From NCBI RefSeq assembly GCF_032884065.1, contig NC_088866.1, forward strand, positions 54,506,068 through 54,570,067: a stretch of 64,000 nt of DNA. The letters run 5' to 3'. Source of the stretch: Artemia franciscana (Eukaryota > Arthropoda > Branchiopoda > Anostraca > Artemiidae). The notes under the pieces were generated by a model. It was given only the letters and a program-made list of their open reading frames with translations. It was not told the DNA's origin and made no database searches. Of this stretch, positions 1 through 19,990 are shown one piece after another; position 1 is the stretch's first letter; each line of letters opens with the position of its first letter. A program made the position numbers and the translations under genes.

Positions 1-534
1 TTCTCTTTTGCGGTTGTATAACAAATGTGTGTTTACAATGCATATCTGTTTATCCGGGTTCTTAAATGGGGTGAGAATAGAAATAAGTGCAATGTTATCT
101 CGATTAAGTAAATCTATTCCATTCTTTAGCATTTCTAAGGAATGATCTTCTTTTAGACTAAATTCACATTTTTTAAAAAAGCTGGCACACCCATCAATCT
201 TTTCTTGGGTTTTTTGTTTAAACACTCCGTCATACCCCTGAGATTGAAAATACGATAAGTAGGTATTATAATAGTAGTCAGCATCCACTTCCTGTAAGCA
301 TACAATATCTGCATTTGACATTTTGAATTGGTTAAAAAGTCTTTTTTTCCTATCTGGCCATTTTAAATTTTCTTCGTTACAATTATAGTACAAATACGGT
401 ATTGTTTCGATATATCCTTGAGCTAGTACATTATATGACATAATTGTAAAATCTAAAGATTGAGTTTCTTGGTTTTCTTTTGGCCTTTGACAATTTCTTG
501 GAGTTTCCCACTTTCTAATTTCCGTTAGATTCAT
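1..534 (-). CDS. ANGEL/CCR4-type EEP-fold nuclease, partial (C-terminus beyond the window edge)
   Basis: The minus strand is open from ATG at 534 to base 1, giving 178 codons. The protein enters the endonuclease/exonuclease/phosphatase fold almost at once. Residues 32-38 read MSYNVLA, with the metal-site Asn at 35. Residues 79-83 read CLQEV, with the catalytic Glu at 82. A stretch at about 113-118 (DGCASF) and residues 168-174 (NTHLLYN) are typical of ANGEL, nocturnin and CCR4 proteins, and NTHLLYN points to ANGEL. Family members act on RNA 3' ends; human ANGEL2 removes 2',3'-cyclic phosphates. The Asp and His of the C-terminal half lie outside the window. There is no long N-terminal extension and no intron in the visible part. 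It follows a 2H phosphoesterase and a SOCS-box gene on the same strand downstream of a retroelement pol. Family assignment is firm; whether the gene is host or cargo is open. Confidence 0.85.
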   Translation of the reverse strand, partial: MNLTEIRKWETPRNCQRPKENQETQSLDFTIMSYNVLAQGYIETIPYLYYNCNEENLKWPDRKKRLFNQFKMSNADIVCLQEVDADYYYNTYLSYFQSQGYDGVFKQKTQEKIDGCASFFKKCEFSLKEDHSLEMLKNGIDLLNRDNIALISILTPFKNPDKQICIVNTHLLYNRKRE

Positions 535-1117
535 TTTCTTACAATCCTTCCCTTTTTTGGATTTTGAACTACAAATCAGTACCGATTTGTTTCTGTTTTA
601 CTAATTATTTGGTGTTAATTGGTATTATTATTAAGCAGTATATAAGTTTAAGGTTACCTGTTTGGCTTGGTATTCAGTTGATGATCTGGAAATATTATGG
701 TGTTAATTTATTTATGTCAGAAGGACTCAGCGCGTCGTAACCATTCTTTGGACATATTTATTAAATATATAACGATGTCTTGAAATAGTTAATATTTTAA
801 GCGTTAACTGGATTTTTAGGTAAATCTAATAGTTTCTATTTAATGAATATAAAGTGATTATACTTTTTAATTTTTTCTTGAATATAAACGAATTTATTTG
901 ACAAAATAATTTAGTTTCAGATAAAATTTAAACCTACCACTGAGATGTATCGCTGTGATTGGTTATTTCTTTAAATGCCTCCGGAGAAGCTTCATTGTAA
1001 TTGGTTAATTGAAAAGATGGGTGGTAACTTTTCTTGACTTTTGAGATCCGCTAGGCGGTTTTTTTTTTCAGCTATAATTTAAAATTCTTTTAAAACTGCT
1101 ACAGGTCTTTAAAGCGT

Positions 1118-1169
<52 letters not shown>

Positions 1170-1706
1170 TTTTGTTATGCGAAAAGTGTTTGTAGGGTGT
1201 TTATAATTGAAATTCATTTCTTGGTTGTAAAAATCATTCTTCCATTAACAGATGTACCTTAAGGGTTATTTATTATACAATGCATACATTGTATGTTTTA
1301 TGTGTTACGAGTCTATTAGATAAAATGTCTATTTGTGAATTTCACTTTCGTACGTCACTAGCAATTTTGCCCTTCAGAGATCTGTAATTTTGCCAGGTTA
1401 CAAAATATGTTTTTTTTTCAATGTTAGTACGCGCGAATTGAGTTGTTCATACTTTAAGATTTTAGGACTTACATTATAACAGAATTGGCATTTTTTTTGT
1501 AAGACGAAGCTAAAATTTGGTAAGATTAAAATTTTGTGCTTTTATTTTTTCCGTGTTACTGTCCTTTATTTTTTTTTTGTGTCTGTTTAGGTGATAAAAA
1601 TTAGATTGAGCTTCAAATTAATTTCGAAAAAATATATATATTATATTAAAAAGTTATGAATTTTTATGCATACACACAAAAAGGATTTTAATTTAAAAGA
1701 TACTCT

Positions 1707-1762
<56 letters not shown>

Positions 1763-2001
1763 GCTGGCTTTTATAATTATTAGATTGGTTAGTTTTATTC
1801 ACAGACATATTTGGTTACTTATTTGTTACAGACATCTCGATATACTTATTTCTACACTTGTAAAAGAAATTTTAATTGTAATAAAAGACATACATAGGTT
1901 AGTTACTATGCTATTAGTGGCACCAAAGGTTACTAATGATATATTACCTGTTAGTTGTATTATCTACTATATTTTCTTGTTCTCAATTCTTCCAGACTTC
2001 T
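535..2001. other. AT-rich spacer with two long T tracts
   Basis: No convincing gene is visible. Two uninterrupted T runs occur at 1120-1165 (about 46 nt) and 1710-1759 (about 50 nt). On the minus strand, the coding direction of the neighbours, they are A tracts. The second lies about 240 bp downstream of the 2H phosphoesterase stop and could be a fossil poly(A) tail. The plus-strand ORF at 1785-2027 is low-complexity and I do not consider it coding. Confidence 0.6.
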
Positions 2002-2631
2002 TTAGTTGGTTTTTTTGTCGAATTTAATTTCGGATAATATTTTATAATAATTTTCTTCGTTTTTTGTACTTCTCATTGAACAGAATTGAACGCTTTCCGC
2101 GGTTTCGATTCCAAATTTCATATTTTTAAAAATGGACGTTATTGATGGTGGTAGTTTTTTTGCCATCCTTTTTAGTCTAGCGACTTTTCTGAGATTTACT
2201 AAAGTCAAATGAGGCTTCCAGCATTCCTGGTTCGCGAACTGTATTCCTGTTTTACTGATTTCTTTAGTAATTCTATCTAAAAGAGGACTTAAGCGAGCTT
2301 TAAATTCTGTCTCATTATTTAACTGGGCATACAAAATTTGTTCTGAAAATTCTCCGACGCCTTGGAAGTCGAGTATTATTTGATTCTCACTGAGTTCTTG
2401 TTGAAAGGCAGATATTGCCTTCGCGAAAGCATTTTTTGTTAATTCGACTTCACTATTATTTTTTAGGTGGATAACCATTAGTGTAACGTGAAAAGTGCTG
2501 TGTAGTATAAGGGCCTGTGATATACTGGGGTCTATATTAATCATGTAGTTTTGTATCTCCGAGGCTTTTCTCTTTACTTGCGCGCTTTTGACTTGAATTG
2601 CGAAAAAATAATTTGGTGGGTGGTTACTCAT
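2002..2631 (-). CDS. 2H phosphoesterase (AKAP7/LigT-like), 209 aa, intronless
   Basis: The ORF is intact from ATG 2631 to stop 2002. Two H-x-T motifs of the 2H superfamily are present: HVT at residues 48-50 and HLT at 141-143. They are separated by about 90 residues, as in LigT, CPDase and the AKAP7 central domain. The surroundings, FAIQV near the N-terminus and WKPHLTLVNLRK around the second motif, resemble AKAP7 most. Family members cleave 2'-5' linked oligoadenylates or cyclic phosphates and cyclic nucleotides. Coronavirus and rotavirus homologues degrade 2-5A. No anchoring helix, signal peptide or membrane segment is seen, so it is probably cytosolic or nuclear. A T7-AG run that could act as a splice acceptor lies 36 nt upstream of the ATG (AG at 2668-2667, minus strand). 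The substrate is inferred from the family only. Confidence 0.85.
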   Translation of the reverse strand: MSNHPPNYFFAIQVKSAQVKRKASEIQNYMINIDPSISQALILHSTFHVTLMVIHLKNNSEVELTKNAFAKAISAFQQELSENQIILDFQGVGEFSEQILYAQLNNETEFKARLSPLLDRITKEISKTGIQFANQECWKPHLTLVNLRKVARLKRMAKKLPPSITSIFKNMKFGIETAESVQFCSMRSTKNEENYYKILSEIKFDKKTN

Positions 2632-3031
2632 TTTCCTTGACTTTCTTGGCAGATATTTTTCGGTTTCTAAAAAAATTAAGTTACATTAACTTAATGGTTT
2701 TTAGATTGGTACTCCAATCCAATTTTTTGAACTTCCAACGCACAATTTGTCGAAACGTAATACATTTTGTATCATAGCCTTTCTATCATTGTGCCTTGGA
2801 ATATATTCAACTCGGAAATATTGTAGTAAAATCATAGGAGACCATTTCTTAGACCTCTGCACATTAGAAAGAAAGAAACGAGTAAAAGAAACTAATTTAT
2901 TGTTAATTCACTGTTTAAAAGTGATATTAGTTAGATAAAATTTGAACAATCTAATTCATGGTCATTTGAAATACTTATTATATGCCCTTGGCTTGAAATT
3001 TGATTTATTTCAGATTTTAATAGGTGTGGAG
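2632..3031. other. Spacer between the 2H and SOCS-box genes
   Basis: About 400 bp of AT-rich DNA. The only ORF (2747-2938, plus strand) has no recognisable motif and I treat it as chance. It contains the possible acceptor upstream of the 2H gene; nothing else is seen. Confidence 0.5.
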
Positions 3032-3965
3032 TTAAAAAGTCAATCGATATTCTTGGTTGTTATTTCCATGAATATCTTCTATGTGTAGTAAATACCGTTT
3101 TAGGGTTTCAGGGAGTGTTAAGTTAGCCAAAGTGTAGAGAATGTCGGTTTTTTTCATCATAAAGCGTATGTTTTTTCTGCAAAACTCCTTTAAACTGGGG
3201 TTATTTGGAGTAATACAAACTCTTTTGAAAATCAGTTGTTTATGAAAACATAGCGGGCTTATGCAATTTATTATTTTTTTCATATATTAGAATATCTTTT
3301 CCTTTTACTAGTTTTGACCCAATGTTTTCGTCTATTGTATAAAACTTACTAATTAAACGTTTTAATAGTTCGTATTGTCCTAAATATAAGTGATGAATCG
3401 AGTTATTAATCCAGTAGTAATTTATATTGTTTTTTTTGTAGATTTTAAGGAGTAGATCTTTGTTAAATAGCCTATAATCTACTTCCATTAGTATTTCTAA
3501 GAACTTTGAAGGCCAAGGTAGCTCGACATTTTCTTCTTCAAGTGGTGTTAACCAAAAATTTTCACATATTAGGGACGCGATTAATGGATATTTCTTTTTG
3601 GGGATTGAGCAAAGAAGTACTGTAAAATTGTATAGGGCGAATCTGTGCCTGTATCCGTAGTCTTTTCTCATTACCTCTGGAGAAAAAGTACTTATTAGTA
3701 ATATGACCATTATTTCAATTATCAAACTATCACTAGGTATAATTGGAACGTGCAGTAAGGAACGAAGTAAATCGTAACGCAAATTTTTTACTGCATTTTT
3801 TACTGCTGATTCTAAGATTTTATCGTTCGTCTCATGGTTTATTTTTGAAAGATCTGGTAGACTTTGGGTTTTATTTGGAAGCCAAAAGTCTTGTCTTGAG
3901 GGTATGTGGTTTATGACGGGTTCTAGGGGTCTTAGAACATTTTCTAAGGTTCTATTATACGACAT
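3032..3965 (-). pseudogene. SOCS-box protein, interrupted by one frameshift
   Basis: The ORF from ATG 3965 runs 241 codons to 3240. A second frame (3283-3032) continues the same gene after a shift near 3245-3285, in a T-rich run. Its residues 29-70 (about 3199-3074) fit a SOCS box: a BC-box-like start PSLKEFCRKNIR, then LTLPETLKRYLL as in the Cul5-box half. SOCS boxes recruit Elongin B/C and Cullin-5 so that whatever the N-terminal domain binds is ubiquitinated. The N-terminal 240 residues are helical and Leu/Ile-rich; I see no SH2, SPRY or clear ankyrin consensus, so the target is unknown. A single indel with no scattered stops suggests a recent break or a base-calling error. A T6-AG acceptor-like site precedes the ATG by about 70 nt. 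Confidence 0.7.
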
Positions 3966-4044
3966 TTCCTCCGGTTAGTATAAGCTGTTAGTTGAGTGAA
4001 TTTTTACCTGATTTGGTTCCCTCTGGTTACAGATCTAAAAAATA

Positions 4045-4666
4045 TTATTTGTACTTTAGAACTTTAAAATTTTTGGTAGGCAAGTTGTCTTTGTAAGCGT
4101 CTTTTTTAGATTGTTTAGATTTTTTTCGTCTTAAGAAGATTTTATCCCCCTTATCGGCATATTCTCGTGTACTCGGGTCGTATAAAAATTTGGCGTAATG
4201 CCGGATTTCTTCTAATGGGTGATGAATTCCTTCATATTTAGTACAATTTTCATTTTCTTCGATTTTATAACATATTTTTGGGTTTTTACATTTATCAATT
4301 AGAAGAAGGTCAGTTTGTGTCGGCCCCTTGCAAAACCAGTAGCAGATATTAAATTTTTTCTGTAGTTTTCTTATTTTTAATTGTAAACTTGTTAAGTTAT
4401 TCCCTTTTTTGTTTTTATTTGAGTATTTGATTTTTACTTCTCCCCTTGCGGGTCGATATTTTTATCGATTTTTAAGCTAATTTTAGCCCAAATTTATACG
4501 TGTGAGGTTTAAATTTTGTCAAATCGTAATTTAGGTACCAACTTTCTGCGTATATTTCTTTACCGTTTTCATCTTGGACTAGCATAGCGGCCGAATATAT
4601 TATATTTTCCTTGGCATGAATAATTGAAATAAATTCTGTATCTATAATTCCCTTTATCATAGTCAA
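4045..4666 (-). pseudogene. Possible DnaQ/DEDD-fold exonuclease-like protein, frameshifted
   Basis: The first frame (4666-4472, 64 aa) begins with a hydrophobic strand ending in IDTEF, which resembles the ExoI motif D-x-E of DEDD exonucleases, followed by a second strand and ENGKEIYAESW. A shift near 4461-4475 leads into a second open frame (4461-4045, 138 aa). That frame has CYWFCKG, two further Cys residues and IHHPLEEIRHYAKFL, which could be an ExoIII-like helix, and ends in a Lys/Arg-rich tail. Together this is about 200 aa, the usual size of a DnaQ-like domain. The assignment rests on motif resemblance only; an unrelated alpha/beta protein is possible. It is the first gene after pol on the same strand. 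Some LTR elements of other animals are known to carry extra ORFs, including exonuclease types. Confidence 0.4.
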
Positions 4667-4730
4667 ATAATGTTTAAAAAAATATATTTAAGTGCGATCT
4701 TGATACCGCAGGGAGGATAAAGTAGATTTG

Positions 4731-4952
4731 ATGCCAAGTATGAATCTCTGTCAGATATTGCAAATTATGGCTATAATAACGTCGTTTTTTAGCTACAAGT
4801 TAATTTATTTGAAGCCACTAAATTTATATGATAGTAGGGAGGCGAACCAAGAATATGCCCGAAAGGAGTATGACAATTATAAAGTAAATTTGAATAAGTT
4901 TGGCTATGACTACAATTTACGAAGACGCTTGTTGTCACCTGACTATTTGTAA
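4731..4952 (+). CDS. Small putative membrane protein on the opposite strand
   Basis: A 73-codon ORF starts at ATG 4731 on the plus strand, against all its neighbours. Residues 5-28 are hydrophobic enough for one membrane helix. The rest is polar and rich in Tyr, Asn, Arg and Lys and ends LLSPDYL. The composition looks protein-like rather than translated low-complexity DNA, but I recognise no family. It lies divergently, 65 bp from the exonuclease-like start at 4666. It could be a chance ORF. Confidence 0.3.
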   Translation: MPSMNLCQILQIMAIITSFFSYKLIYLKPLNLYDSREANQEYARKEYDNYKVNLNKFGYDYNLRRRLLSPDYL

Positions 4953-5601
4953 TAATTTTTTTTTTTTTTATTAAGGTTATTAATGAGTTTTAATTTATTA
5001 TTATTTGATGGTTGTCTGTATAAGCTTTATGTTTTGTAATATTTTAGTTTTACGGTAAATAAGGGGACAGCGATTCCTATAGGGCAGGTGTTAGTTATAG
5101 TTGTGTTAATAAGCTTTTGCTTTAAGGAATTATTATTATAGTAACAAATTAGTTTTTGGATCTACTCACAATACTGAGCCCTTTTTGACGGAGCAGGCCA
5201 ATTTTTCAATCGGAGTTTATCAAACTTTTCTGAAAAGTATCCTTTTTTATTTTTGGATTCTTATTACGGAGTCACTTGGCGAGGAGCAAAAAAATTAAAT
5301 TAACTCTCTCTGAGTCACAACCCGACGCTGTCAATAAATACATCGAGTTATGATTCATAGAGAATTGATTCGATTCCCTTTCGTGCGACTACCAACTATT
5401 GGCTCACGGGGAATTTTGGATTATACCTTAATTTAGTTTATTCACTTTTTCACTGGTTGTAACACTGAAGAAGTAGCTTCAAGGAGTCCTTTCAAATAAT
5501 TACGGGATGGTTTCTTAGCGAAACCAATTAACAATTAAAAAAATGACTATTTTTAAATTTTTTTTTTATTTCGTTTTACACAAGGCTGATAGATTCTTTT
5601 A
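4953..5601. other. Non-coding stretch after pol
   Basis: This is where the polypurine tract and 3' LTR of a standard Ty3-type element would begin. I compared it by eye with the LTR at 11898-12386 and found no match, no TGTTAC/GCAACA termini and no clear polypurine tract. That absence is the main reason to consider that the element continues to the left. Confidence 0.5.
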
Positions 5602-7561
5602 TTAAAAATCTAATTTATCTGGTTTTTTGACAACCCGGCCGGATCTTGTTATTACCTGTTCTTCTTTAGACTCAGTTTTTTTCTTTGGTTTTGCTAGTGA
5701 TATTAAGTCAAATTTTTTATACTGTTTTTTCAGAAATTTTTGACCTTTTAATTGTGCTTTTTTTGCCTGGGCCGCTGCACTGGGGGGTCTCATTTCTTTT
5801 GATTCCTTGAACTTATCTGCGTCAGATTCACTATCCGTATCTGAGGAACTAGTATTTGTTGATTTATCGCCTGGTTCTTTTTAAGAAGAAGAAGTTTGAG
5901 ATTTAGGCGTTGACCCTGTTTGTGCTTCATAAATTTCTTCTCCTCGCGAAGTGGAGGGTCTACTAATAGATTCGTCCTGTTGATTTCTGGGCTCGGGAGA
6001 ATTGAAGGATTCTTGAGAGCTTTGGGAAGATTCGAATGTCTTCTTGGGGTGCCTCCATTGCTTGAAGCCATGTCTTCCGGGGGGTGAGGAATTGTTTGCA
6101 TTAAGGTTTCCTTCCAAGATACCCAGTCCTTTGGTTTTGCCTTTGAGACGGTTATATTGTGATACTGTTGGTCATCAGTAGGTGGATTAGTATAAAATGT
6201 ACTCTGTCTAGTCTTAATGGGGTAATTAATGATATCAATTGCTTCTCTTAATGTTGGTTTTTGGGGTTGATTGTCCCTTTGCGACTCTATGTCCCCAGGA
6301 GTCTGTATAGCCTTATTTAATTCATCGTGTAACGATAAGGTTCTGTCTATTGCTGAAATAGGTTTCACCAAATTGTCGGGGAAACGCTTTGGGGGGTAAG
6401 GGGTTAAAATTTTATCTGGAAAAAATTGTGACTTTAGAGAAATTATATAGTCCAATGGTTCTGACTCCTCACTGGAAGATGAGTCGCCCTTTTTCCGTCT
6501 CCGCGTGACGGGGGTACTTTTTGGTGGGGTAACCATATTTGTCATGGTCAGAAATTCATTAAATTTTTCTTCGTCACTACTGTTTTCAAAATACCCTTCT
6601 TGAAAATTAAAAGGTTTAAGCTCACTGAGTCTAGAGCGAGGTGGTTCATTTTCGTCCTCCGAGGTATTTGATGTTGAAGGTTGAGGGGTCCATGTTTCTG
6701 TGTAATTTGCCCTTTTTATACGACTAACATGGGTTTTATAGGTTTTTCCCGTTTGTGGTTTTAATAGTTTGAATGTAACGTCATTATCATATCTCTTAAT
6801 TATTCTATAAGGGCCAGCGTACCTATTAGAAAGCTTCTTGCCTTCCAATTTGGTTTCATTTTTTAAATAAACGCAATCTCCTACTTGAAAATTGAGTTCA
6901 CCTTAAACATTTGGAATATTTTTGGCCTCTTGTTGTCTTTTTGATTTTTCTATTTCTTGTTTTACAAGTTTGTAAGTTTTTCTCATTCTATTGATAAATT
7001 CTTGCCTATAATCTCGAGAATCGTTATAATATTGCCTCGATTCTATAATTTCCTTATAAGGGATTCTAAAGTCTCGTCCGAATAATATGTAGAATGGGTT
7101 ATCACGAATGACCTGGGAGTAAGCGGTATTAATTACATTTGTTAAATAAGGTAAGGTTTCGTGCCAATCTCTGCGATTTTCATTCGTATATTTGCTTAAA
7201 ATATTAGAGAATAGTTTGTGTCTGTTCTCGATCTTCCCGTTGGCCTGGGGGTGATAGGGGTCGATACCAATTTACTTATTTGAAGAAAAGACATTAAATC
7301 CTTAGTTACTTTCGATACGAAATTAGGGCCGTTATCGCTTGATACTGTATTAGGAATACCGAAATTAAGGAATATTTTAGCGAGAGCTTTCGACATTGTA
7401 TAGGCGCTTTGATTTTTTAATGGTTTAGCAAAAGTGAAACCAGAAAAGTGATCAATCACTGATAGTACACAGGTGTGTCCTTCATTAGACATGGGTAGTC
7501 CTCCGCTAGTACCATATAAATCAAAAGAAACTATATCAAAGGGGAACCGGGCCGTAGGCAT
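5602..7561 (-). pseudogene. Integrase catalytic core and C-terminal region (frameshifted)
   Basis: The core opens at 7561 with the first catalytic Asp (residue 14, VSFDLYG) and the second (residue 76, SSDNGPNF). A one-base shift near 7265 moves the region with the catalytic Glu into another frame, which runs to a TAA at 6905-6903. The same frame resumes at about 6902 with the C-terminal GPY/F-type module (NRYAGPYRIIKRY, near 6820). A long, polar, Ser/Pro/Glu-rich tail follows. It changes frame again near 6070-6110 and near 5880, and the last frame ends at 5602 with TRSGRVVKKP, a typical Ty3-type integrase tail. At least three indels and one stop are needed to explain the open frames; sequencing error in homopolymers is an alternative to decay. 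Confidence 0.8.
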
Positions 7562-7577
7562 TCTTCCTGTCCCTGGA

Positions 7578-9710
7578 TTAGGGTAGACTTGAGGATTTTT
7601 TTCTTAAATTACATGTTTCACAACTATTAACGTAATTTTTTAACTTTGTTAAGGCTGAAGCAACGAAAAAGTATTGTTTTAATCTATGGAAGGTCTTCTC
7701 TATTCCCAAGTGACCTCCTACTTCAGAATGAAAAAATTCAAAAGCGGGTTTTTCCAAAATTTGGGGTAACACTGGTATAATGGTCGTTTGATTTCTTTTA
7801 TTGTTATCGGTCATTATTTTACACAGTATTTGTTCATCTAAATCGTAATAATAATTATCAATTTCTTTTTTAAAGGATTTCATTTCATTGGGTAGGTCTC
7901 TATCATATAAGAAATATTCTATTAGAGCAGAACAAATATTATCTTTCTTTTGATGTATTTTTATATTATTTAAAGATAGTGGGCTGTCTTTGTGTTCTTC
8001 TTCTACCAAATTATTGGTCTGCATTTTTAAATTTTTATTTTTCGGAGCATGTTTTTCTTTTATCGTGTTAATTTCTTCATTTTCATTTTCTAATGGAGCA
8101 TTATCTGGAAACCTACTAAGATAGTCGCATGGGGTGTTTTGTTTTCCTTTAAGATGTTCAAATTCATAATCTAAATCTTGAATTTTTAAAATCCATCTCG
8201 CGAGGATTCCGGACGGTTTTTTGAAAGTCTGTAGGTATTGAAGACTTTTATGATCGGAACGTAGTTTAAATTTTCGTCCAACCAAGTAATGTTTAAATTT
8301 TTCTAAATGGTGAATAATCGATAATAATTCAAGTTGTGTCGCAGAATAATTACTTTCTCCAGGTGTAAGAGTACGCGAAGCATATGCTATAACTTTTTCT
8401 TCCCCGTTTATTATTTGGGAGAGAATCGCCCCAATCCCCTTGGTTGAGGCATCCGTAGTAACAACGAATTGTCCTGTTTGGAAGTCGGGTAAACATAAGA
8501 TAGGTTCTGAAGTCAAAGCCTTTTTTAAATGATCTAATGAATTTTGAGCTAATTTAAACCACGTAATTTTTTGGGGGTTCCCTCTAGTGAGGTCCGTGAG
8601 AGGTTTTGCTACTTGTGCGTAATTTCTTATAAATTTTCGAAAGTAGCTCATTAATCCTAAGATTCCTCGTAATTGTTTAATTGTTTGAGGGGGTTTTATA
8701 TTTTTAACAGATTCTATCTTTTCAGGGTCTGGGGAAATTTGTCCTTGTGTTACAACTACTCCTAAAAATTTTAGTTTGGTTTGAAAAAGATTTACTTTTT
8801 CAGGTCTACATTTTAAATTGCCTTCTCTAAATTTCTCAAACACTTTTGCTAGGGTCATAGGATGGTCTTCCGTATCTTTGTCCATAGCTATGACGTCATC
8901 AACAAAATGAATTATGTTATTTAGACCTCTTAATAAATGAAGGAGGGGTCTACACAATGCACTTGAACTGGTTTTTAGTCCAAATGGTACTCTTAAGTAT
9001 TCATAAGAACCACATTCTGATGTTGAAAAAGCTGTTTTAAAAATATCGGCACCTTTTATTTTTACTTGATGATAACCTTGTGTCAAATCTAGGGAAGTAA
9101 ATATTTTATTTTTATTTGATATTGAGTCTAGAATTTCGTCTATTCTAGGTAGGGGAAATTTGTCACTTTCTACCTGTTTATTTAAAGCTCTATAATCTAC
9201 CACTAATCTAAGGTCATTATTCTTTTTCGGGACTAAAATAACGGGGGCAGAGTATGGGCTTATGCTTGGCCTTATGATTTGATTTTTTTCAAGTTCATGT
9301 ATTTTATTTATTAGCCATTCTTTATGTTTATAAGGAATTCTGTATGGTTGTTTTGCAACTGGCGGCCCCGTGGTTTGTATTGCGTGTTCATAGAATCGGA
9401 TAAGTCCTATGTCGTCTTCAGATGTCGAAAAGACATCTTTATATTCCCATAATAAGTCGCATAATTTTTGTTTTAATGATATATCGGATATGTGACTTAG
9501 TTCGAATTTTTCAAGAAATTGAGATCGCGTCAGTGAAAATTCTTTGTCAACGTGAACATTAATATTATTCACTAAGTTTTTTCCCAAATTTTTCCAATTA
9601 TTAATATCGGATTCCGATACTATTTGTATCTCTACTAAACATGTACCTTTACTTAGGGTAATTAGGTCGTTTTCGTGGGTGTTCGTTACCCAAATATAAC
9701 TAACCTTCAC
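7578..9710 (-). CDS. Pol: reverse transcriptase, RNase H and integrase zinc finger
   Basis: One 710-codon frame. The RT domain covers about residues 110-340: SLDLTQGYHQV with Asp 208, and the FVDD box with Asp 271-272. RNase H covers about 410-530: Asp 420 in TTDAS, Glu 461 and Asp 486 in RSDHKSL. After a Lys/Glu-rich linker, the last 60 residues carry the integrase HHCC zinc finger (HSEVGGHLGIEKTF, then CETC). The frame overlaps the protease ORF by 11 bp. Pol is probably made as one polyprotein with protease by frameshifting, or the overlap marks an indel. It stops just before the integrase core, which continues in another frame at 7561. Confidence 0.93.
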   Translation of the reverse strand: MKVSYIWVTNTHENDLITLSKGTCLVEIQIVSESDINNWKNLGKNLVNNINVHVDKEFSLTRSQFLEKFELSHISDISLKQKLCDLLWEYKDVFSTSEDDIGLIRFYEHAIQTTGPPVAKQPYRIPYKHKEWLINKIHELEKNQIIRPSISPYSAPVILVPKKNNDLRLVVDYRALNKQVESDKFPLPRIDEILDSISNKNKIFTSLDLTQGYHQVKIKGADIFKTAFSTSECGSYEYLRVPFGLKTSSSALCRPLLHLLRGLNNIIHFVDDVIAMDKDTEDHPMTLAKVFEKFREGNLKCRPEKVNLFQTKLKFLGVVVTQGQISPDPEKIESVKNIKPPQTIKQLRGILGLMSYFRKFIRNYAQVAKPLTDLTRGNPQKITWFKLAQNSLDHLKKALTSEPILCLPDFQTGQFVVTTDASTKGIGAILSQIINGEEKVIAYASRTLTPGESNYSATQLELLSIIHHLEKFKHYLVGRKFKLRSDHKSLQYLQTFKKPSGILARWILKIQDLDYEFEHLKGKQNTPCDYLSRFPDNAPLENENEEINTIKEKHAPKNKNLKMQTNNLVEEEHKDSPLSLNNIKIHQKKDNICSALIEYFLYDRDLPNEMKSFKKEIDNYYYDLDEQILCKIMTDNNKRNQTTIIPVLPQILEKPAFEFFHSEVGGHLGIEKTFHRLKQYFFVASALTKLKNYVNSCETCNLRKKSSSLP

Positions 9711-10464
9711 CCTTTTCGTAATTTATAATTTGTTCTTCGCAAACTACATTTTTCGGGAGATCTTCCGACGGCGATGCTACCCAAGTTTCATTTTTATCAT
9801 TAACTGGTTCTAACATCTGTGATATTTGGACCCTCTGCATTGATTTAGGGGGAATCTTAGTTTTTCTCACTACGAATCCATAATTTTTTTCGTTATGACT
9901 TTCTTTTATTGAGTTTAGGATATTATCTTCTGGTTTTTTTCTGGGAGTTTCTATAATCGCTACTTTTTTCCATAAATATGAAATTTCTTGAATTTGTTTT
10001 TCTCTATACTCTTTCATGTGGCCTATGTTTTCCTTTACCTTGTTTGCTTGTATGTTATTTATTTCTGATTTGGTTTTTGTCGGATGTATAAACTTTGAAT
10101 TTGCTACATCTAATAATATTTTATTGGCTTTTAAAAAGTTAGCGTCTATTATCACTTCGTATGGAAAATTTTTACAAACTATAAATCGGGTATAGAAATT
10201 TCTGTCATCTTTGCGCAAGGTTAGGTACACAGTGCCTTTTACATCCAGGTCGAGTCCCGTCAAACTTGATAAATTGGGACATATATTGCTCATTCGTCGT
10301 TTAATATAATTGGGTAATTTGTTAAATACGGATGTATTTATCACATTTACTGTTGCCCCTGAATCTATAAGGGCTGAGAAATAAATATTTCCTGCATTAA
10401 AATTTTCAAATACTGGTAACATATTATTATTATTTGCACTTAAAAATGGTATAATCACTGGCAA
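9700..10464 (-). CDS. Retropepsin (aspartic protease) region of the LTR element
   Basis: The 254-codon frame has the retropepsin active site ALIDSGAT at residues 32-39 (Asp 34). A flap region follows and, near residue 107, VIIDANFL, which fits the conserved second strand of Ty3 proteases. The C-terminal half is a linker to RT and ends in the next frame at 9710. It lies between gag (ends 10500) and RT. The ATG at 10464 may not be used if the region is translated as a gag-pol fusion. Confidence 0.85.
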   Translation of the reverse strand: MPVIIPFLSANNNNMLPVFENFNAGNIYFSALIDSGATVNVINTSVFNKLPNYIKRRMSNICPNLSSLTGLDLDVKGTVYLTLRKDDRNFYTRFIVCKNFPYEVIIDANFLKANKILLDVANSKFIHPTKTKSEINNIQANKVKENIGHMKEYREKQIQEISYLWKKVAIIETPRKKPEDNILNSIKESHNEKNYGFVVRKTKIPPKSMQRVQISQMLEPVNDKNETWVASPSEDLPKNVVCEEQIINYEKGEG

Positions 10465-10499
10465 GGACCTATATATTATTTTGCCACCAAATTTTGGTC

Positions 10500-11587
10500 C
10501 TATGAATTTTGGGGGCTTGATTCGTTTCGCTGGGGTTCCCAGATTTCGGGTGTAGAGTTTTCATTAGTTCTATTTTGGTTTTCTTGATTATTAATTGAAG
10601 TTGAGTTGTTATATGGGTTCCGTCGGCTGATAAAGTTACCTCTTGTATTTCTATTCCAACCATTGTTAGGTTGGTTTATCCTTCCGCGATACCCTCCGCG
10701 ATACTGATTCGTACTGCGTTGGAAATTTCGGGTTGGATAATTACCTCTTGTTAAAAAGGTGTTCCCTCGATTGCCTCTAGGGGCGTACCCATTATAGTTT
10801 GTCCCCCTGGACAAATGGTTGCTCGATCCCCTAAAATACGGGCGATAATTATTGTTTGTAAAACAATTTCTTGCGATGTGACCTAACCGGTTACAGGTGT
10901 AGCACCTTAGTGGTTTTGGCGATGATTCTCTAGAGAAAAATCGCGGAGAGGGATCTCTTGATTTTATAGCTGTTTTACTTTCTACCGCATTTATTGATAG
11001 TTTTTGATGCTGCAGGACTATGGAATCAATTTCCACGTCTGTCTCTATCTCCTGAACTGCCAGTTCTAAGTCGTCGATTTTTTTTGGAAATTAAGAGACG
11101 ATATAGTTTTGGGTTGAGTCCCTGTTTAAATGCGTTTAGTATTATTTTTTCATACAATTCCCCTTCACCTGGACCGTATCGCGCTTCTGTTGCGATTCTA
11201 ATTTTATTTAAATATTCTCTTACGTTCTGGGTCTGTTCGAATGTTACTAACCCATTTTTTAGTTTGTTCAATGAACTAGTATCAATGAATCTTTTTTGAA
11301 AAGCCTGTTGCAATAATTTTATTGAGTTAATTGTTGAGGTGGTTTCAGTTCCTATGGTATTTTCAATTTGTTTCAAAAATGTCAGAGCCTGTCCTTTTAG
11401 TCTTAAGAGTAGCATGTTTTTTAATGCATTTAAGTCAATTTTTGTCATTTCAACAAATTGTCCGAAATGGATGTTAAAATTGATCTACATCTGTATCCCC
11501 TTCATAATCAGGTAATGACTTTGCAATTTCTACCGAAGTTGCAATAATTTGTTGCGCTTTTAATAATTCATCTTGTTCCTGAGCCAT
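10500..11587 (-). pseudogene. Gag with CCHC zinc knuckle, two frameshifts
   Basis: Gag appears to start at ATG 11587 (MAQEQDELL). That frame stops at 11476-11474 and coding continues in the frame 11448-11026, with capsid-like helices (LLLRLKGQALTFL, FKQGLNPKLY). A second shift in an A8 run near 11075-11085 leads to the frame ending at 10500. That last part has the zinc knuckle CYTCNRLGHIARNC (C-x2-C-x4-H-x4-C, 10904-10863), then a basic Arg/Gly/Asn-rich nucleic-acid-binding tail. An overlapping frame (10663-10469) probably connects to the protease. About 360 aa in total, normal for Ty3-like gag. Confidence 0.85.
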
Positions 11588-11879
11588 ATTTGTTATTTTA
11601 ATTCAGTTTTTTTCTTGAAGTTATGCGGTATATAAAATTTTAGTTTTCATTTAACATTTATTTATATTTAACTACTGAAGATTCTAATTATTTTAAGATG
11701 GGGTACACACAAAAAATACATAAGTAGAAGTAAAATTATACTACACTTAAATAATGTAAAATTAAATGCACTAAAAATCAAAAAATAATTCGTGAATAAA
11801 TCATATTTGATTTAATCATATTTGTCTAGGGTAGCAGGTAGTCATGTTGTTAGACATATACAGTTCCTTCAGTGTCTTT
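11588..11879 (-). other. Untranslated leader of the LTR element
   Basis: About 290 bp between the primer site and the gag ATG. It is AT-rich with no ORF and is presumably 5' UTR with packaging signals. I see no distinct motif. Confidence 0.5.
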
Positions 11880-11897
11880 TTTGACGTCCGCGCCAAA
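11880..11897 (-). promoter_or_regulatory. Primer binding site, putative
   Basis: Directly inside the LTR the minus strand reads TTTGGCGCGGACGTCAAA. TGGCGC at the LTR edge fits pairing with a tRNA 3' end (…GCGCCA). The tRNA is not identified. Confidence 0.6.
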
Positions 11898-12197
11898 TGT
11901 TACGGGGGGGGGGGGTTTCTTATAAAGTTTGTTCCATTTCTTGTAGTTTACTGATTGCTCATAAAGTTTACTTGATTTCTTATATAGTTTAAGTTGTTTG
12001 CGGTATGGGAGCTTTATAGTTAATGGATATAAATTGGGAAGGTTCTATTGACCAGTCTCTATAATCTTGGAGACGAATTCATTATCATGACGTTTAGGTT
12101 TGCCGAGATGGGCAGATTCCCTTGGGAACGAACCAGTAGACAATAGGAACTGTACCTGTACCTTGACTCAAAGACAAACACAATTATTGACAATAAT

Positions 12198-12203
12198 TTT
12201 ATT
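12198..12203 (-). terminator. AATAAA polyadenylation signal in the LTR
   Basis: AATAAA on the minus strand, about 115 bp downstream of the TATA box. This is the expected place for the R-region poly(A) signal. Confidence 0.5.
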
Positions 12204-12312
12204 TTCTTACTTCATACACAACTTCAGGTAAAATGGCTCCAATAATAGTAGTATAAAGTGCATCAAACAGTGACTACCAAAAAACTGAATTACACTCTTA
12301 ACTTTTAGTTCA

Positions 12313-12325
12313 CCTTATATATCCC
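12313..12325 (-). promoter_or_regulatory. TATA box in the LTR
   Basis: The minus strand reads GGGATATATAAGG about 65 bp inside the LTR start. This fits the U3 promoter of a short-U3 LTR. Confidence 0.55.
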
Positions 12326-12386
12326 GAATCAACCCGGATTTCTAAATTAAGCACTGGGTAGACTGACCTCAGAAATGTTGCAACAC

Positions 12387-13060
12387 AACTCTTTTTTTTG
12401 ATTATACAACATATGGCTTAACCTCCTTGCAAAGATTTATTATAACGAGGGTTTTCACCTTCAGTTTGTTGACCAGACCAGAAGTAGAAATCTGGTTTCT
12501 AATTGGCTTTATTCAAAAGTTTGAATCTAATTTTGGTAGTCAAAAAAAGTATCAGTTTTTGCTTGAAGGAAGATTTGTACCAAAGGTAAAAAGTATCATT
12601 TTTTGCCTGTTATAAAACTTGTACTAAAAAAGCACAAATCCTATGAGATAATTAACATGCACTTTAAAATCTTTATGTGTATAAGAGATTCTTATTTTAA
12701 AACTTTCTAAAGTAAATGAATGAGATTTGGTTTTGAGTTCTGAAAGGGGGAGGGGGTTTGCTGGTCCATATGTTACAAAGTCACCAGTTGCAATAAAGCA
12801 TAAACTGTGCTCTTTTATTTTTCACAAACATTTGGATAAACAAGAAGCACTAATGGCAAAAAGTATTTCAGATTGGTTATCATGGTAGTTTGTGGGCAGA
12901 TAAATATCTAGCACAATAAAATTCCAGATCCTGATTGCCAAAAAGTCACTTGCTGAATCAAAAATGGATTAAGGATAAATAGACTTCAGAAAGGTTGCTA
13001 GACTACCACAAGGCTGGCCAAAAGACTGAGATCAGTAAGCTGAGACCAAGAATACTTTAT
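12387..13060. other. Unassigned AT-rich DNA between the LTR and LINE remains
   Basis: No gene or clear repeat is seen. The plus-strand ORF at 12427-12615 looks like chance. Confidence 0.5.
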
Positions 13061-13067
13061 GATTGGT

Positions 13068-14001
13068 TTACAGTTCCAAAAGGCTCAGGCTCAAAGTAGT
13101 TTCAAATTGCTCCTGAATACACATTATGTCATACTTAGATAAAAAGTCCTTTAAAAGCACAGAATGATTTAGCAAATTTTCATTTAAATTCCATGAGACA
13201 AACGTATAAGAGATGGAGGATCCTTGGTTTATTTCTTCATTGAACCTTGAGTAGGCAGGTTTCAGACTCATTTTGATTGGGTTTAGCATTGTTTTTTGCC
13301 TGATTAGCCAGACATCTTACACTGTTGTATGTATGGCCTTTTTTTGCACAAAATGCAATACATATCTTTTGTACACTTATTATCCTTTGTGGAGGTGTGG
13401 TCAGAAGCACTACAGTAACCAAAAATAGGCACTAATACACAGTTGGCCACTATATGACAAACTTCATAACAGGAAAATAAACTTTTTGGGAGAAATTTGA
13501 AATCTTCTGCAGGCAGCTTCTCAAAGCCAACCCAAACTGATACCACAAGAAAATATTCAAGGTCCTCCCTGGTCCCAAAATATAGCTTAAACACTTTGGA
13601 ATGCTCAAAGTTGCTGATTTCTATTGTCCTTGATGCCCTTGGAACGAGGGATTCTACATCAGTACAAGTCATGTTAGGAGAAATTTACTTCAGGATGGCA
13701 ACAAACAGTTTCTCTTTGAGCATAGCAGTAATCTCAGGCTAACTAGCTTTCATTTTCTCAACAGATGATTTAGATTTGATGTACAATTTCCAGTCCTGTT
13801 TCAACTTTCTTAGCTCACTTATTTCCAATGAGTCAAGACAAATTCTGTACACAAACTGTTTACAAGGGTTTGAATAAAACTTAAACCCAAAATGCAATCC
13901 ATCATTTCATCAGCTCTTAGAAAAGGAATATAATGGAAATACCTAACTATATGTTGATGGATCTTTATGTGAAGAGGGATGTTGAAGTGGTTGCTTTTCA
14001 A
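13068..14001 (-). pseudogene. LINE 5' fragment: ORF1 zinc-knuckle end and start of the endonuclease
   Basis: Reading the minus strand, frame 13672-13304 has Cys/His groups (CYEVCHIVANC, GYCSASDHTS, CILCKKRP) typical of CCHC knuckles at the end of a LINE ORF1. The next frame (13289-13068) has FVSWNLNENLL and YDIMCIQEQF, the first two motifs of the AP-type endonuclease of ORF2 (Asn and catalytic Glu). The order ORF1-EN is right for a LINE. The fragment ends near 13068 before the rest of EN and RT. Frame 14001-13819 may be the preceding part of ORF1. Several indels are present, so it is dead. Confidence 0.65.
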
Positions 14002-16085: not shown

Positions 16086-16723
16086 CTAAAGCCGTATTAT
16101 GCGATGGATGTGAAAAATGGCTGTGTATAGAATGCATAAACATGTCCATCCCAGAGTAGGAACTCTTTACAAAGATGTCAACCATTGGAGATATGCAGTG
16201 GTAATGTTCGGTTTGCAAGCACTCTGGTACATCAGCAGACTCCCCTTCATTAGCTGAAATCTCGAGCCGTATAACATCCAAGGTCCCAAGTGCCTTGGCT
16301 ATCGCGGACATAGTTAAAGGAGTGGTAGAGGATCTTAAACGTGATATCACCGAAACCATAGATGAAGTCAAAGAGCGTGTCGATGACCTTGAGAAAAACA
16401 TGGCGAAAAAATCTACTATCCTAGAAGTTAAACAGCATGTCGAAGCAGCAATGCTGCAGGAAACATCCAAGATCAAACAGGCCATTGATTCCCACCTCGA
16501 AGACGAAGTCCGCAGACTCTTTAGACAGGAAACAGACAGAGATAGCAGGAAATTTAACCTAGTTGCTTATGGCGTACCCCTGCAGCTAGGAATATACAGT
16601 GACAAGGCGTTCATTGAGAAATGTCTTACAGAGCAATACAAAATTCCTAACGCAAAGATTACTAATGTAAGACGAATTATAAGCCAATCGCCAGCTGTCA
16701 AAAAGGTTGGGGCCAATCAGTAA
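16086..16723 (+). pseudogene. LINE ORF1: PHD-like finger and coiled coil
   Basis: From about 16086 the plus strand encodes a Cys4-His-Cys3-like pattern (LCDGCEKWLCIEC … CSVCKH) interrupted by two stop codons. An uninterrupted 142-codon frame (16295-16723) follows, with long charged heptads (VVEDLKRDITETIDEVKERV), i.e. a coiled coil, then an RRM-like stretch (RKFNLVAYGVP, AKITNVRRI). This architecture is known from ORF1 of several LINE clades, where it makes an RNA-binding trimer. The stops show it is dead. Confidence 0.6.
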
Positions 16724-17024
16724 CCCATCAGACAAGCCGGAGCAAGCTATCAAGAATCAACTGAAAGCAGACCCCCTCCCATTCTTTTCTCTGTTCAAAA
16801 TTTAAACTTAAAAAAACGCATTCTACAAAGATCTTATGAGCTTGGTCAACAATTCAGTTTAGGGCAGATGCATCACGGGAAGACCGGGAGAAAAGAAAAG
16901 TCTTAGCCGCTGAACACAGACGCCAAAGTGAACTAGGAGAGCCGAACTTAGCTATCAACCGCGGACAGATCGTCTCAAAAAACTTTGTGCGCCCGGGTGG
17001 CGGATACTCTCACCAGACCATGGA

Positions 17025-19990
17025 ATGTTAGTTGCTCCATCTGCTAGCCCTGTACATAGTGTAAATAGTGACACAGTGAATACCGATAAACTAACAAGTA
17101 TTGATGAACTTCCTTACTCGTCCAGTCCTAATTCGTTCAAGTCCTTCACAAATGAAAGCGCCAATTCAACCGACGATAGTAGATCCTGCATCACTTTCTT
17201 GTCTATTGAAGATGAGCCAGTCCGAAATATCTACAATTACCAAAAGGAAGTATCTAACTCAAAAAGGAAGCAAGTAAGTCAAGATTTTTCCGCTCTAATC
17301 GCAAACGTTGACCAACTTCCTAACAAAATCAACGAGCTGAAATCTATGAGTTACGCAAATAACTATGATGTTATACTCCTTACTGGGGTCTGTCCTAAGA
17401 ACTCAAGAAATCAGCTCCTAGACTCACATGCTAATCTGCAAGGTTACCACACAATATCCAATTTATCATCTAGTCATTGCCGCCGTAGAACACTTGCATT
17501 AGTCAAATCCTCGTATGTTGCAACCGCCATTGCGCATCCCAGTGCAACCGCTATTGCGCATCCCTTACACTCAAACAATATTCTTCGATATTTCAGTTCC
17601 ACAGAGTAAAAACCATCCCATTGTTAGAATTGGCTGCGTGTACAGAAGCCCATCATCACCTTCACCCGAGCAAACAGATACAAAGCTAGCTGAGCTCATT
17701 TGGAAGATTGCAGACACCCAGAAGGGTGACCTATTAATTGCGGGCGACTTCAACCTGCCGACCATCACCTGGAAAGACCAATTCCCCTATGTCACCTTTG
17801 ATTCTGTGAATCCCATCATAGATATGATCCATGATACTTGCCGCCACCAAATTGTCGATCAACCGAGCCGTTTCATGAGCGGGCAGCTTCCAAGCCTCCT
17901 AGACCAAATATTTCTTTGAAGACCAGAATCCCTTCTTTATGCTAAGTACATGCCCCTAATCAGGAAAATCGACCATATTGCCATTGAAATAAAAACAACA
18001 TTCCTCGAAGTAACTAACAGCTACATCAAAAGGACCTTCATAGACTATGAGAATATTAGAATGGATCTCATCAACATCTCCTGGAATGAAGTCCTAATCG
18101 ACTCTTTAGAACAACAATGACAATGCTTCAAGGAATTACTGCTAAACAAAGCTGAGCAGTACACTTCGAGCAAGCTCATCCCAAAACCACGAAGACTACC
18201 GACAATGACAAAAGATATTACTTAAAAATTTAGCACGCGATTTATACACGAGCTTCGAATCTAAACTTGCAGACGAAGCTAAGACGAATCCAAAAAAATT
18301 TTGGAGATATGTGTTTAGCCAAGACCATAATAGACGAAGCATCAGGAAACTAGTAACTGAAGAAGGTGAAGAAATAACTGATATCAACAAGCTTGCAAAC
18401 TCACTGAATCAGCAATTCGTTTTTGTTTTCACCACTGAACCCGATGGTCCGTTACCCTCTTCACCTGAATACATTGTATAATCACCAATGGAAAGCATCA
18501 GTCTATCGCATACGGATATTCTCAGACGCTTACAGAAATTAGATACTAATAAATCGCCAGGACCAGATAACCTACATCCCAGGCTATTAAAAGAAACTGC
18601 AGCTATCATAGCAGAACCACTTAGGAGAAATTTCCAGACTTCACTTACCACGAGAGAGCTGCCAGCAGGCTGTAAAATAGCCAGTATTACATTTGTTTTA
18701 AAGAAAGGTAATCGTTCCAAGCCTGGAAACTATCGGCCAATTAGCCTGACCTCAGTCGTCGTCAAAATACTTGAGCGCATAGTCAATGATTCAATCCTTA
18801 AGCATTAGACAACCAACAAGATCTTGTCCCCCAAGCAGCATGGCTTCCAGTCAGGGAAATCAATTGAAAACAAACCTCTTGGAATCATACGAAGAAACCA
18901 CAGACCTAATTGACCAAAGAAATCCGGTTGACCTGCTCCTGCTGGACTTTGCTAAGGCCTTTGACAAGGTTCCTCACAGTCGACTGCACTCCAAAATATC
19001 CGCTATCGGTATCAATCAGGCTGTTGTAGACTGGCTGATAAATTTCCTTACAAAGCGCAAGCAGAAAGTTCGCTTATTTGCTACAGATGGCAAACCAATT
19101 AACTCTGACGAGGCTGAAGTAATGAGCGGAGTAAAACAAGGAACTGTACTGGGTCCAGCTTTCTTTCTGATTTCCATCAATGATATATTCAACCATATTG
19201 ATAATGGCATGCACCTGTTCGCTGATGATGCCAAACTTTTTGGTATTGCATGCCCTCAAAAAATCCAGCACGACATAGATGAGACACAAATTTGGACCCA
19301 TGACTGGCTTCTCCAATTTAATGCAGGAAAGTGCTGTGTATTACACCTTGGACCCAATGGCAAACTAAACAATGTATAACCCCACGACCAAAGTAAGAGA
19401 GAAACTAAAGAACAGAGCAGAATAAAGGGGTATAGGTGTCATTATTGATGATAAACTTAAATTTTACAGCCATGTCCAGCATGTTGTTTCCCCTGCAAGC
19501 TCCAGTCTTGGACTACTAAAACGAACCATCAACAGCAGACAGGCATCTATATTTATAAAATTATACAAGGCTCTCGTCAGACCTCATCTCGATTTTGGCA
19601 TATGTCTTGCTGGTCCTTCTTATCAACAAGATGTGAGACTCATCGAAAACATACGGAGACGAGCAACAAAATGCATAAAAAGTCTAGCATCAACCTCATA
19701 TGAGGACCGTCTCAAGTACCTCAAACTACCCACTCTGGTTTACTGACGCTTGCGCAGCGAAATGATGCTTACTTACAAGCTACAGAACAAAAAGTCAGCA
19801 ATCTTGGGCGGCAATCTCAGTACCAGCCAGCAATACACAAGAGGACACTCCAAGAAGCTACCAAAGTCAAGCTCCCGATCTAAAACTCGCCAAACGTTCT
19901 TTTCGAGAAGAGTCATAAATCATTGGAATAAACTGAAAGATTCAACTCTCATCCAGTCCTTCCATCCAGTCCTTCAAAAACCAACTTGAT
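17025..19990 (+). pseudogene. LINE ORF2: AP endonuclease and reverse transcriptase, broken
   Basis: Coding is spread over several frames. Endonuclease: 17300-17920, with LIANVDQLPNKINELKS, YDVILLTGVCPKN (the usual catalytic Glu appears replaced by Gly), IGCVYRSPSS and LLIAGDFNLP. RT: 18488-18808 with KSPGPDNLHPRLLK and NYRPISLTSV, then 18786-19379 with LLLDFAKAFDKVPH, GVKQGTVLGP and the catalytic LFADDAKLF. A C-terminal part (19440-19990) keeps LVRPHLDFG and FSRRVINHWNKL. At least four frame changes and several stops. The plus-strand RT is intact at its FADD box, but ORF2 cannot be translated as one protein. Confidence 0.85.

What the first reader, a model, noticed from the sequence alone, without database searches (positions are those of the whole stretch)
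1..12386. A Ty3-type LTR element that may carry four extra genes after pol
Downstream of pol and on the same strand lie, without introns, an exonuclease-like gene, a SOCS-box gene, a 2H phosphoesterase and an ANGEL-type nuclease. No 3' LTR is seen where pol ends (5602) nor anywhere down to base 1. If the genes lie between the LTRs, this is an element of more than 12 kb with a set of RNA-end, nucleotide-signal and ubiquitin functions otherwise typical of large viruses. LTR elements with captured ORFs are known in other animals, but I do not know this combination. Alternatives: a truncated retroelement beside host genes or beside another integrated element.
Basis: partly seen in the sequence, partly recalled or inferred. 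Interest (0 to 1): 0.9.

Follow-up and report, generated by a model that had tools for sequence, protein, structure and literature searches.

The report
Giant brine-shrimp retrovirus with captured genes
A brine shrimp genome holds many copies of a 20,000-base retrovirus-like element that carries, besides the usual retroviral genes, a block of enzyme and protein-destruction genes that look suited to disarming the host's antiviral defences.

Summary
The assembly matches Artemia franciscana. The missing 3' LTR lies 6.8-7.7 kb left of base 1. The LTRs are 880 bp (not 489), 98.5% identical and flanked by the duplication ACTT. The element is 20.5 kb on the minus strand: gag, pol, exonuclease-like, SOCS-box 1, AKAP7-type 2H phosphoesterase, ANGEL-type nuclease, SOCS-box 2, baculovirus-F-type Env. 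It is an Env-bearing Ty3/errantivirus-type provirus with a five-gene cassette. Three other copies read keep this full order. Matching 4-5 bp duplications flank all 9 copies, full or partial, whose two ends were read. A second lineage (LTRs differing at 1 of 1,216 columns in the copy read) has exo, two SOCS-box genes, 2H and env. Between lineages six genes show dN/dS 0.07-0.20; cassette synonymous divergence is 1.7-2.3 against 0.3-0.6 for gag, RT and env. Two copies are mosaics: lineage-A LTR, gag and RT with lineage-B exo and SOCS genes. So the genes are under selection and swap as modules. Mini-exon-like motifs precede three cassette genes. Immune antagonism is inferred, not shown. The exonuclease label rests on motifs only. 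New variant of a known kind.

The parts
12778..12781 (-). target-site duplication ACTT beside the 5' LTR; its partner is at L009:2291-2294 (C4:54498358-54498361)
11898..12777 (-). 5' LTR (880 bp). The 3' LTR is L009:2295-3175 = C4:54498362-54499242, outside the window
   Evidence: 13 mismatches in 879 columns between the two LTRs
11883..11895 (-). primer-binding-site-like TGGCGCGGACGTC, 2 nt after the 5' LTR
   Evidence: TTTGGCGC follows the 5' LTR in the other copies whose 5' LTR end was printed
10500..11587 (-). gag (frame-broken here; 344-aa open frame in another copy, zinc knuckle, Retrotrans_gag just below its cut-off)
9700..10464 (-). aspartyl protease part of pol (weak matches)
   Evidence: RVP 0.0021 in another copy, below its cut-off
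7578..9710 (-). reverse transcriptase, RNase H and integrase zinc-binding part of pol
7196..7561 (-). integrase core
5602..6902 (-). integrase C-terminal SH3-like domain and long tail (two frames here)
4045..4687 (-). exonuclease-like gene, two frames here; open as one frame in some other copies
   Evidence: motif only, no profile match
4008..4034 (-). mini-exon-like motif (pyrimidine tract-AG, 27 nt ending AG, GTAA) before SOCS1
   Evidence: prediction only
3032..3965 (-). SOCS-box gene 1 (frame-broken here; 344 aa in its relative P0001)
2667..2680 (-). acceptor-like pyrimidine tract + AG before the 2H gene; a similar site in lineage B
   Evidence: read by eye
2002..2631 (-). AKAP7-type 2H phosphoesterase, 209 aa, both HxT motifs present
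1710..1759 (-). A50 tract behind the 2H gene, AATAAA 40 nt before it; a tract at the same place in five other copies
658..685 (-). mini-exon-like motif before the ANGEL gene
   Evidence: prediction only
1..534 (-). ANGEL-type EEP nuclease, first part; continues to L009:9416 (C4:54505483). SOCS-box gene 2 (L009:8259-9284), Env (L009:4851-8090) and the 3' LTR follow outside the window

Best explanation
This is one copy of a 20-kb, Env-bearing Ty3 (Metaviridae, errantivirus-type) endogenous retrovirus family of Artemia. A cassette of accessory genes sits between pol and env: exonuclease-like, SOCS-box 1, 2H phosphoesterase, ANGEL-type nuclease, SOCS-box 2. Shown: one unit bounded by LTRs and target duplications, copied as a unit, genes under purifying selection between lineages, and cassettes that change partners (two mosaic copies). 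Inferred: the cassette genes are made from spliced subgenomic RNAs and blunt host defence. The SOCS-box proteins would act as Cullin-5/Elongin adaptors that mark host restriction factors for destruction. The 2H enzyme would cleave 2'-5'-linked nucleotide signals. The ANGEL enzyme would act on 2',3'-cyclic phosphate RNA ends or 2'-5' linkages. The exonuclease-like protein would trim RNA or cDNA ends.
For: 3' LTR and ACTT duplication. Matching 4-5 bp duplications in 9 of 9 copies with both outer flanks read: seven (window ACTT, C4802 GATA, C3 CTTG, C9 GTAT, C14 ATAT, C18 ACACT, C63 GTAAG), lineage B C15 GACA, C12 GTTG. Full gene order in C18, C13 and C63, parts of it in other copies. Co-location: 49 of 63 RT places, 97 of 150 exo places with 2H behind them; opposite-strand controls 0. 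Env C-terminal half is Baculo_F 8.1e-31. 2H and SOCS profiles. dN/dS 0.07-0.20 for six genes between lineages A and B. Mosaics: C9 and C14 have LTR, gag and RT nearer lineage A and exo and SOCS genes nearer lineage B. Both 2H HxT motifs in all 15 rows (12 distinct copies). Young LTR pairs: 0.08-1.5% divergence. Mini-exon-like motifs before SOCS1, ANGEL, SOCS2 and lineage-B SOCSa.
Against: No transcript, protein or activity data. The exonuclease has no profile match. SOCS2 reaches the SOCS_box cut-off in the window copy but not in the C18 copy (21.7 bits against 23.5). The targets of the SOCS-box proteins are unknown, and whether Artemia uses 2'-5'-linked signals was not examined. 14 of 63 RT places showed neither exo nor 2H in the scored lists; three of these 14 hold cassette genes or remnants when read directly, and the other 11 were not read. 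Four copies read share an env deletion, so part of the family may spread without its own Env.
Confidence: 0.85

Rival explanations
1. A truncated Ty3 element beside host genes or beside another integrated element; the four genes are not part of it.
For: No 3' LTR inside the window; pol is broken in this copy.
Against: 3' LTR with matching duplication found beyond all the genes; same order between LTR sequences in three other copies; 150 scored matches each for 2H and exo in the genome, linked on one strand.
Confidence: 0.01
2. The cassette is a separate mobile unit or a piece of a large DNA virus that landed once in an ancestral element and now hitch-hikes without function.
For: A-tracts lie in the spacers; a tandem array of rearranged element pieces exists on contig C3608; cassette and backbone have different synonymous depth.
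Against: dN/dS of 0.07-0.20 across lineages and open frames at 50% amino-acid identity do not fit passive cargo. The lineages carry different cassettes. No relative in 4 viral-contig scans, which with single proteins find close relatives only.
Confidence: 0.07
3. The genes serve the element's own RNA handling (3'-end repair, deadenylation, particle RNA processing) rather than host-defence evasion.
For: ANGEL and exonuclease-like proteins act on RNA ends (recalled); DEDDy exonuclease ORFs in bdelloid LTR elements have been discussed in that sense (PMC5408684, passages read).
Against: Several SOCS-box proteins and a 2H enzyme fit countering host factors better. SOCS1 and 2H have much higher dN between lineages (0.35-0.47) than gag, RT or env (0.06-0.08), though their dS is also higher.
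Confidence: 0.2

Closest known systems
Errantivirus-type insect endogenous retroviruses (gypsy, 17.6, 297 and kin; Metaviridae)
   Same: Ty3-type pol order, LTRs with TG...CA ends, 4-bp duplications in 7 of 9 copies here, Env of the baculovirus F family
   Different: about 20 kb instead of roughly 7-9 kb (recalled); five extra genes between pol and env
Bdelloid rotifer Juno and Vesta LTR elements (PMC5408684, passages read)
   Same: extra ORF behind pol, including DEDDy exonuclease-like ORFs; different ORF3 types shared among elements
   Different: the passages report DEDDy and GDSL ORFs, no 2H, ANGEL or SOCS-box gene; exonuclease there is DEDDy, here DEDDh-like by eye
Burro giant Gypsy-like elements of planarians (PMC6431247, passages read)
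   Same: giant Ty3 element (over 30 kb) with host-like domains (MATH, BCL-2, ubiquitin-like) and an Env-like region
   Different: other domains, and Env in frame between gag and pol; here a block of separate genes between pol and env
Viral AKAP7-like phosphodiesterases of nidoviruses and rotaviruses (PMC10835031, search listing and start of abstract only)
   Same: AKAP7-type 2H enzyme captured by a virus
   Different: here in an LTR element of an arthropod, beside an ANGEL-type nuclease; activity untested
Lentiviral accessory-gene layout (HIV-1 vif; recalled)
   Same: SOCS/BC-box protein gene behind pol, small exon with a donor just before its start codon
   Different: different virus family, no sequence relation shown, splicing here only predicted

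Membership tests
Ty3/Metaviridae LTR element | two direct LTRs, short target duplication, PBS and purine tract | tested here: met
   GGGATAGGGGATA before the 3' LTR
Ty3/Metaviridae LTR element | pol order PR-RT-RNaseH-IN | tested here: met
   (PR only by weak matches)
Errantivirus | Env homologous to baculovirus F protein, downstream of pol | tested here: met
   (PF12259 8.1e-31 for the C-terminal half; the whole 1079-aa frame gave no Pfam match); C-terminal membrane-anchor-like stretch by eye
Errantivirus | RT falls in the errantivirus clade in a tree | not tested
   no labelled reference set at hand; among the 120 RT hits listed, those outside this family are about 32-42% identical
LTR element with captured ORFs | extra genes lie between the LTRs in independent insertions | tested here: met
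AKAP7-type 2H phosphoesterase | PF10469 match and two HxT/S motifs | tested here: met
AKAP7-type 2H phosphoesterase | cleaves 2'-5' oligoadenylate or related nucleotides | not testable with these tools
   needs an enzyme assay
ANGEL/CCR4-type EEP nuclease | best match to ANGEL, EEP catalytic motifs | tested here: met
   second part just below the Pfam cut-off; QEVD, GDLN and SDHY read by eye
SOCS-box Cullin-5 adaptor | SOCS box with BC box and Cul5-box-like end | tested here: met
   (C18 SOCS2 below cut-off); weak PDB match to ASB9 at E 0.097
SOCS-box Cullin-5 adaptor | binds Elongin B/C and Cullin 5 | not testable with these tools
   needs a binding assay; AF2 model of P0001 was poor (pLDDT 36.5)
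DEDDh exonuclease | profile or structure match to RNase T/DnaQ exonucleases | tested here: not met
   no match to an exonuclease in Pfam with E limit 5-10 and none in the PDB at E up to 1; only motifs by eye, so kept as 'exonuclease-like'

The most novel reading that the evidence does not exclude
A complex, lentivirus-like arthropod retrovirus arose independently on an errantivirus backbone. It uses acceptor/mini-exon/donor sites to make a set of accessory proteins (several SOCS-box degraders, a 2'-5' phosphodiesterase, an ANGEL nuclease) that jointly silence a nucleotide-signalling antiviral pathway of the host, and it swaps whole accessory cassettes by recombination between lineages.
Probability: 0.35. 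Interest if true: 0.95.

Novelty: new variant of a known kind. Interest (0 to 1): 0.86.

Why it matters
Elements that keep several host-like, defence-related genes under selection point to the host pathways they must beat. An AKAP7-type phosphoesterase, an ANGEL-type nuclease and Cullin-5-type adaptors together in an arthropod endogenous retrovirus would predict 2'-5'-linked nucleotide signalling and Cullin-5-targetable restriction in a crustacean, which can be tested enzyme by enzyme. It also shows that a Ty3-type element can reach 20 kb, move recently and exchange accessory cassettes.

Tried and rejected
Host genes beside a dead element: rejected by the 3' LTR and the copies. Virus contigs in IMG/VR: 4 scans with SOCS (P0001), 2H, ANGEL and RT found no relative. 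AF2 of P0001 was too poor to use. PDB profile search of the exonuclease: none. A-tract as a captured mRNA tail: the tract behind 2H sits at the same place in six copies including the window, with AATAAA 40 nt before it in two of the six; but A-runs of 20-47 also appear at other places in single copies, so slippage is not excluded. Literature: 10 of 10 searches used; no title or abstract start in the lists shown named an LTR element with AKAP7-, ANGEL- or SOCS-box genes, or this Artemia element. That is absence from those lists of an open-licence library only. A genome search with the Env half did not complete. Reading the empty site (one LINE on both flanks) was not pursued.
Full report
OBSERVATION. 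On the minus strand of the window, Pfam finds a Ty3-type order: zinc knuckle, weak protease, RT, RNase H, H2C2, integrase core, SH3 below its cut-off. Behind pol lie a 209-aa AKAP7-type 2H gene (PF10469 7e-38; AKAP7 8e-25 in the PDB), an ANGEL-type gene cut by the window edge (ANGEL2 5.3e-31) and a SOCS-box gene that is frame-broken here; its relative P0001 is 344 aa with SOCS_box 1.8e-6. The 'exonuclease' has no match that reaches a curated cut-off, none to an exonuclease family, and none in the PDB. It shows IDTEF near the start and, in lineage B, HRPLDE near the end, motifs I recall as DEDDh-like. No second LTR lies inside the window.

ORGANISM. 2H relatives include two proteins named Artemia franciscana. 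The window's assembly has 1,270,528,402 bases in 6,468 contigs. A published A. franciscana assembly has 1,270,721,445 bases, 6,486 scaffolds and 34.71% GC (PMC11492255, passages read). I infer that this is A. franciscana.

THE ELEMENT IS WHOLE. The 10 kb left of base 1 (L009) contains the LTR in the same orientation. The repeat is 882 columns at 98.2%, so the LTR is 880 bp (window 11898-12777). It is flanked by ACTT on both sides, with TGGCGCGG two bases after the 5' LTR and GGGATAGGGGATA before the 3' LTR. Between base 1 and the 3' LTR lie the rest of ANGEL, a second SOCS-box gene (2.5e-5) and a 1079-aa stop-to-stop open frame. That frame as a whole gave no Pfam match, but its C-terminal half matches Baculovirus F protein at 8.1e-31. 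From LTR to LTR the element is 20,483 bp (coordinates).

COPIES. Nine other places with this LTR were mapped with the single proteins. C18, C13 and C63 have the full order gag-pol-exo-SOCS1-2H-ANGEL-SOCS2-env. C3 has it without most of env. C4802 lacks SOCS2, the end of ANGEL and the first half of env. C7 was read in part and has exo-SOCS1 twice before 2H and ANGEL. C11 was read in part and goes from 2H to an env remnant without ANGEL or SOCS2. C9 and C14 have exo and other SOCS genes, no 2H or ANGEL match, and mostly deleted env. Both outer flanks were read for nine copies in all (window, C18, C63, C4802, C3, C9, C14, C15, C12), and all nine have identical 4-bp (seven) or 5-bp (two) duplications. 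For C13, C7, C11 and C18:17.18 Mb only one outer flank was read.

GENOME-WIDE. Scored: 2H 150 of 329 candidates, ANGEL 94 matches of 104 candidates, exo 150 of 386, RT 63 of 2,663; counts are lower bounds. The first 23 2H rows have no internal stop. With typed coordinates, 49 of 63 RT places have exo and/or 2H downstream on the same strand, 97 of 150 exo places have 2H 0.8-5 kb behind them, and 36 of 55 ANGEL places have 2H before them; the three opposite-strand controls gave 0. Of the 14 RT places without a listed partner, C9 and C14 do carry exo and SOCS genes and C18:17.18 Mb carries 2H and SOCS remnants, so the scored lists miss weak ones; the other 11 were not read.

SECOND LINEAGE. Two copies with about 50% identical 2H (L038, L039) are about 95% alike over their longer shared stretches (88-91% over three shorter ones) and read exo-SOCSa-SOCSb-2H-env without an ANGEL match. 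The C15 copy has 1.2-kb LTRs with 1 mismatch in 1,216 columns, duplication GACA, and long open gag and pol frames. LTR pairs of the other copies compared differ by 0.4-1.5%; for C18 and C63 only about 470-500 columns were compared.

SELECTION AND MODULARITY. Nei-Gojobori values between one lineage-A frame and one lineage-B frame per gene: gag dN 0.076 dS 0.637; RT-RNaseH 0.061/0.343; env part 0.083/0.540; exo 0.119/1.698; SOCS1 0.467/2.312; 2H 0.353/2.164. The ratios are 0.07-0.20, so constraint dominates. Fourfold sites differ at 0.23-0.39 for the backbone and 0.61-0.66 for the cassette. The cassette thus looks several times deeper than the backbone. A direct comparison shows why: C9 and C14 have LTRs (95-97% to A; only 113 bases align to the B LTR), gag (93-96% to A, 81-84% to B) and RT (98% to A, 90% to B) of lineage A, but exo (93-94% to B, 78% to A), SOCSa (87% to B, no hit to A) and part of SOCSb (93-95% to B) of lineage B. 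Cassettes have changed backbones. C63 and C18, the controls in that call, are nearer lineage A in every gene compared; note that some reference sequences came from these two copies and give 100% by construction. Limits: one pair per gene for dN/dS, cassette dS near saturation, changes after insertion included. Close 2H pairs (dS below 0.03) within lineages give ratios of 0.58-1.76 on very few changes.

EXPRESSION. Upstream of 2H both lineages keep a pyrimidine tract plus AG. A scan for tract-AG, short exon ending AG, GTAA found three hits in the window copy: before SOCS1, before ANGEL and before SOCS2. It found all three in C63, the first two in C18, and one before SOCSa in lineage B (none in L040 or L041); block shuffles gave 0.1-0.3 per piece. 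The pattern was written after I had seen the SOCS1, ANGEL and SOCSa sites; only the SOCS2 site is out of sample, and the block shuffle is a rough control. No hit lies before exo, 2H or env. The layout recalls the small exon before vif in HIV-1 (recalled). No RNA data were available.

FUNCTION (inferred). Both HxT motifs of 2H are present in all 15 rows, 12 distinct copies. AKAP7-like enzymes have been captured by nidoviruses and rotaviruses and antagonise OAS-RNase L (PMC10835031, title and start of abstract). SOCS boxes recruit Elongin B/C and Cullin 5; ANGEL2 removes 2',3'-cyclic phosphates (both recalled). Hence the proposal that the cassette blunts a nucleotide-signal or RNA-end-based defence and degrades host factors. 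Confidence is high for the anatomy and moderate for the function.

KNOWN VERSUS NEW. Captured ORFs behind pol are known in bdelloid LTR elements (DEDDy, GDSL; passages), and giant Ty3 elements with host-like domains are known in planarians (passages). The lists of the 10 literature searches showed no LTR element with this gene set. I rate it a new variant of a known kind.

Noticed in passing
L031, L032, L033, L034 (C9 and C14): Two copies are mosaics: lineage-A LTR, gag and RT with lineage-B exo and SOCS genes.
   Followed up: yes
G000:C3608:246000-315000 (L042 = 246000-255999): Ten 2H matches some 5-10 kb apart; the piece read holds a repeat about 6.8 kb apart (95% identical) of rearranged element parts (2H, SOCS2, env start, integrase tail, exo, SOCS1): a tandem array of element fragments.
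   Followed up: partly
L031, L034, L043, L044: Four LTR-bearing copies (C9, C14, C12, C18:17.18 Mb) show much the same env deletion (about residues 875-992 missing, nothing matched before 793), as if an env-less subfamily had spread.
   Followed up: partly
L030:6673-8478: At C3 the 5' end has two LTRs 45 bp apart with a PBS-like start between them, probably a recombination product.
   Followed up: no
window 1710-1759, L022, L025, L029, L035, L037: A-tract (23-50 nt) at the same place behind the 2H gene in six copies including the window, with AATAAA 40 nt upstream in two of the six; possibly a fossil poly(A) tail from gene capture, possibly slippage.
   Followed up: partly
window 12778-13672 and L009:1-2294: The element seems to sit inside a decayed LINE: endonuclease- and RT-like frames lie around the flanks in one orientation; read by eye.
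   Followed up: no
window 16295-19379, 31571-32614, 46747-47692: LINE pieces with endonuclease and RVT_1 matches, a Harbinger-like transposase frame by eye and a PIF1-like helicase as in Helitrons.
   Followed up: no
P0001-P0018 except P0009, P0012: Proteins 64-98% identical to the element's SOCS, 2H and RT occur in JGI and ENA entries without a species name, possibly brine-shrimp DNA in environmental samples.
   Followed up: no
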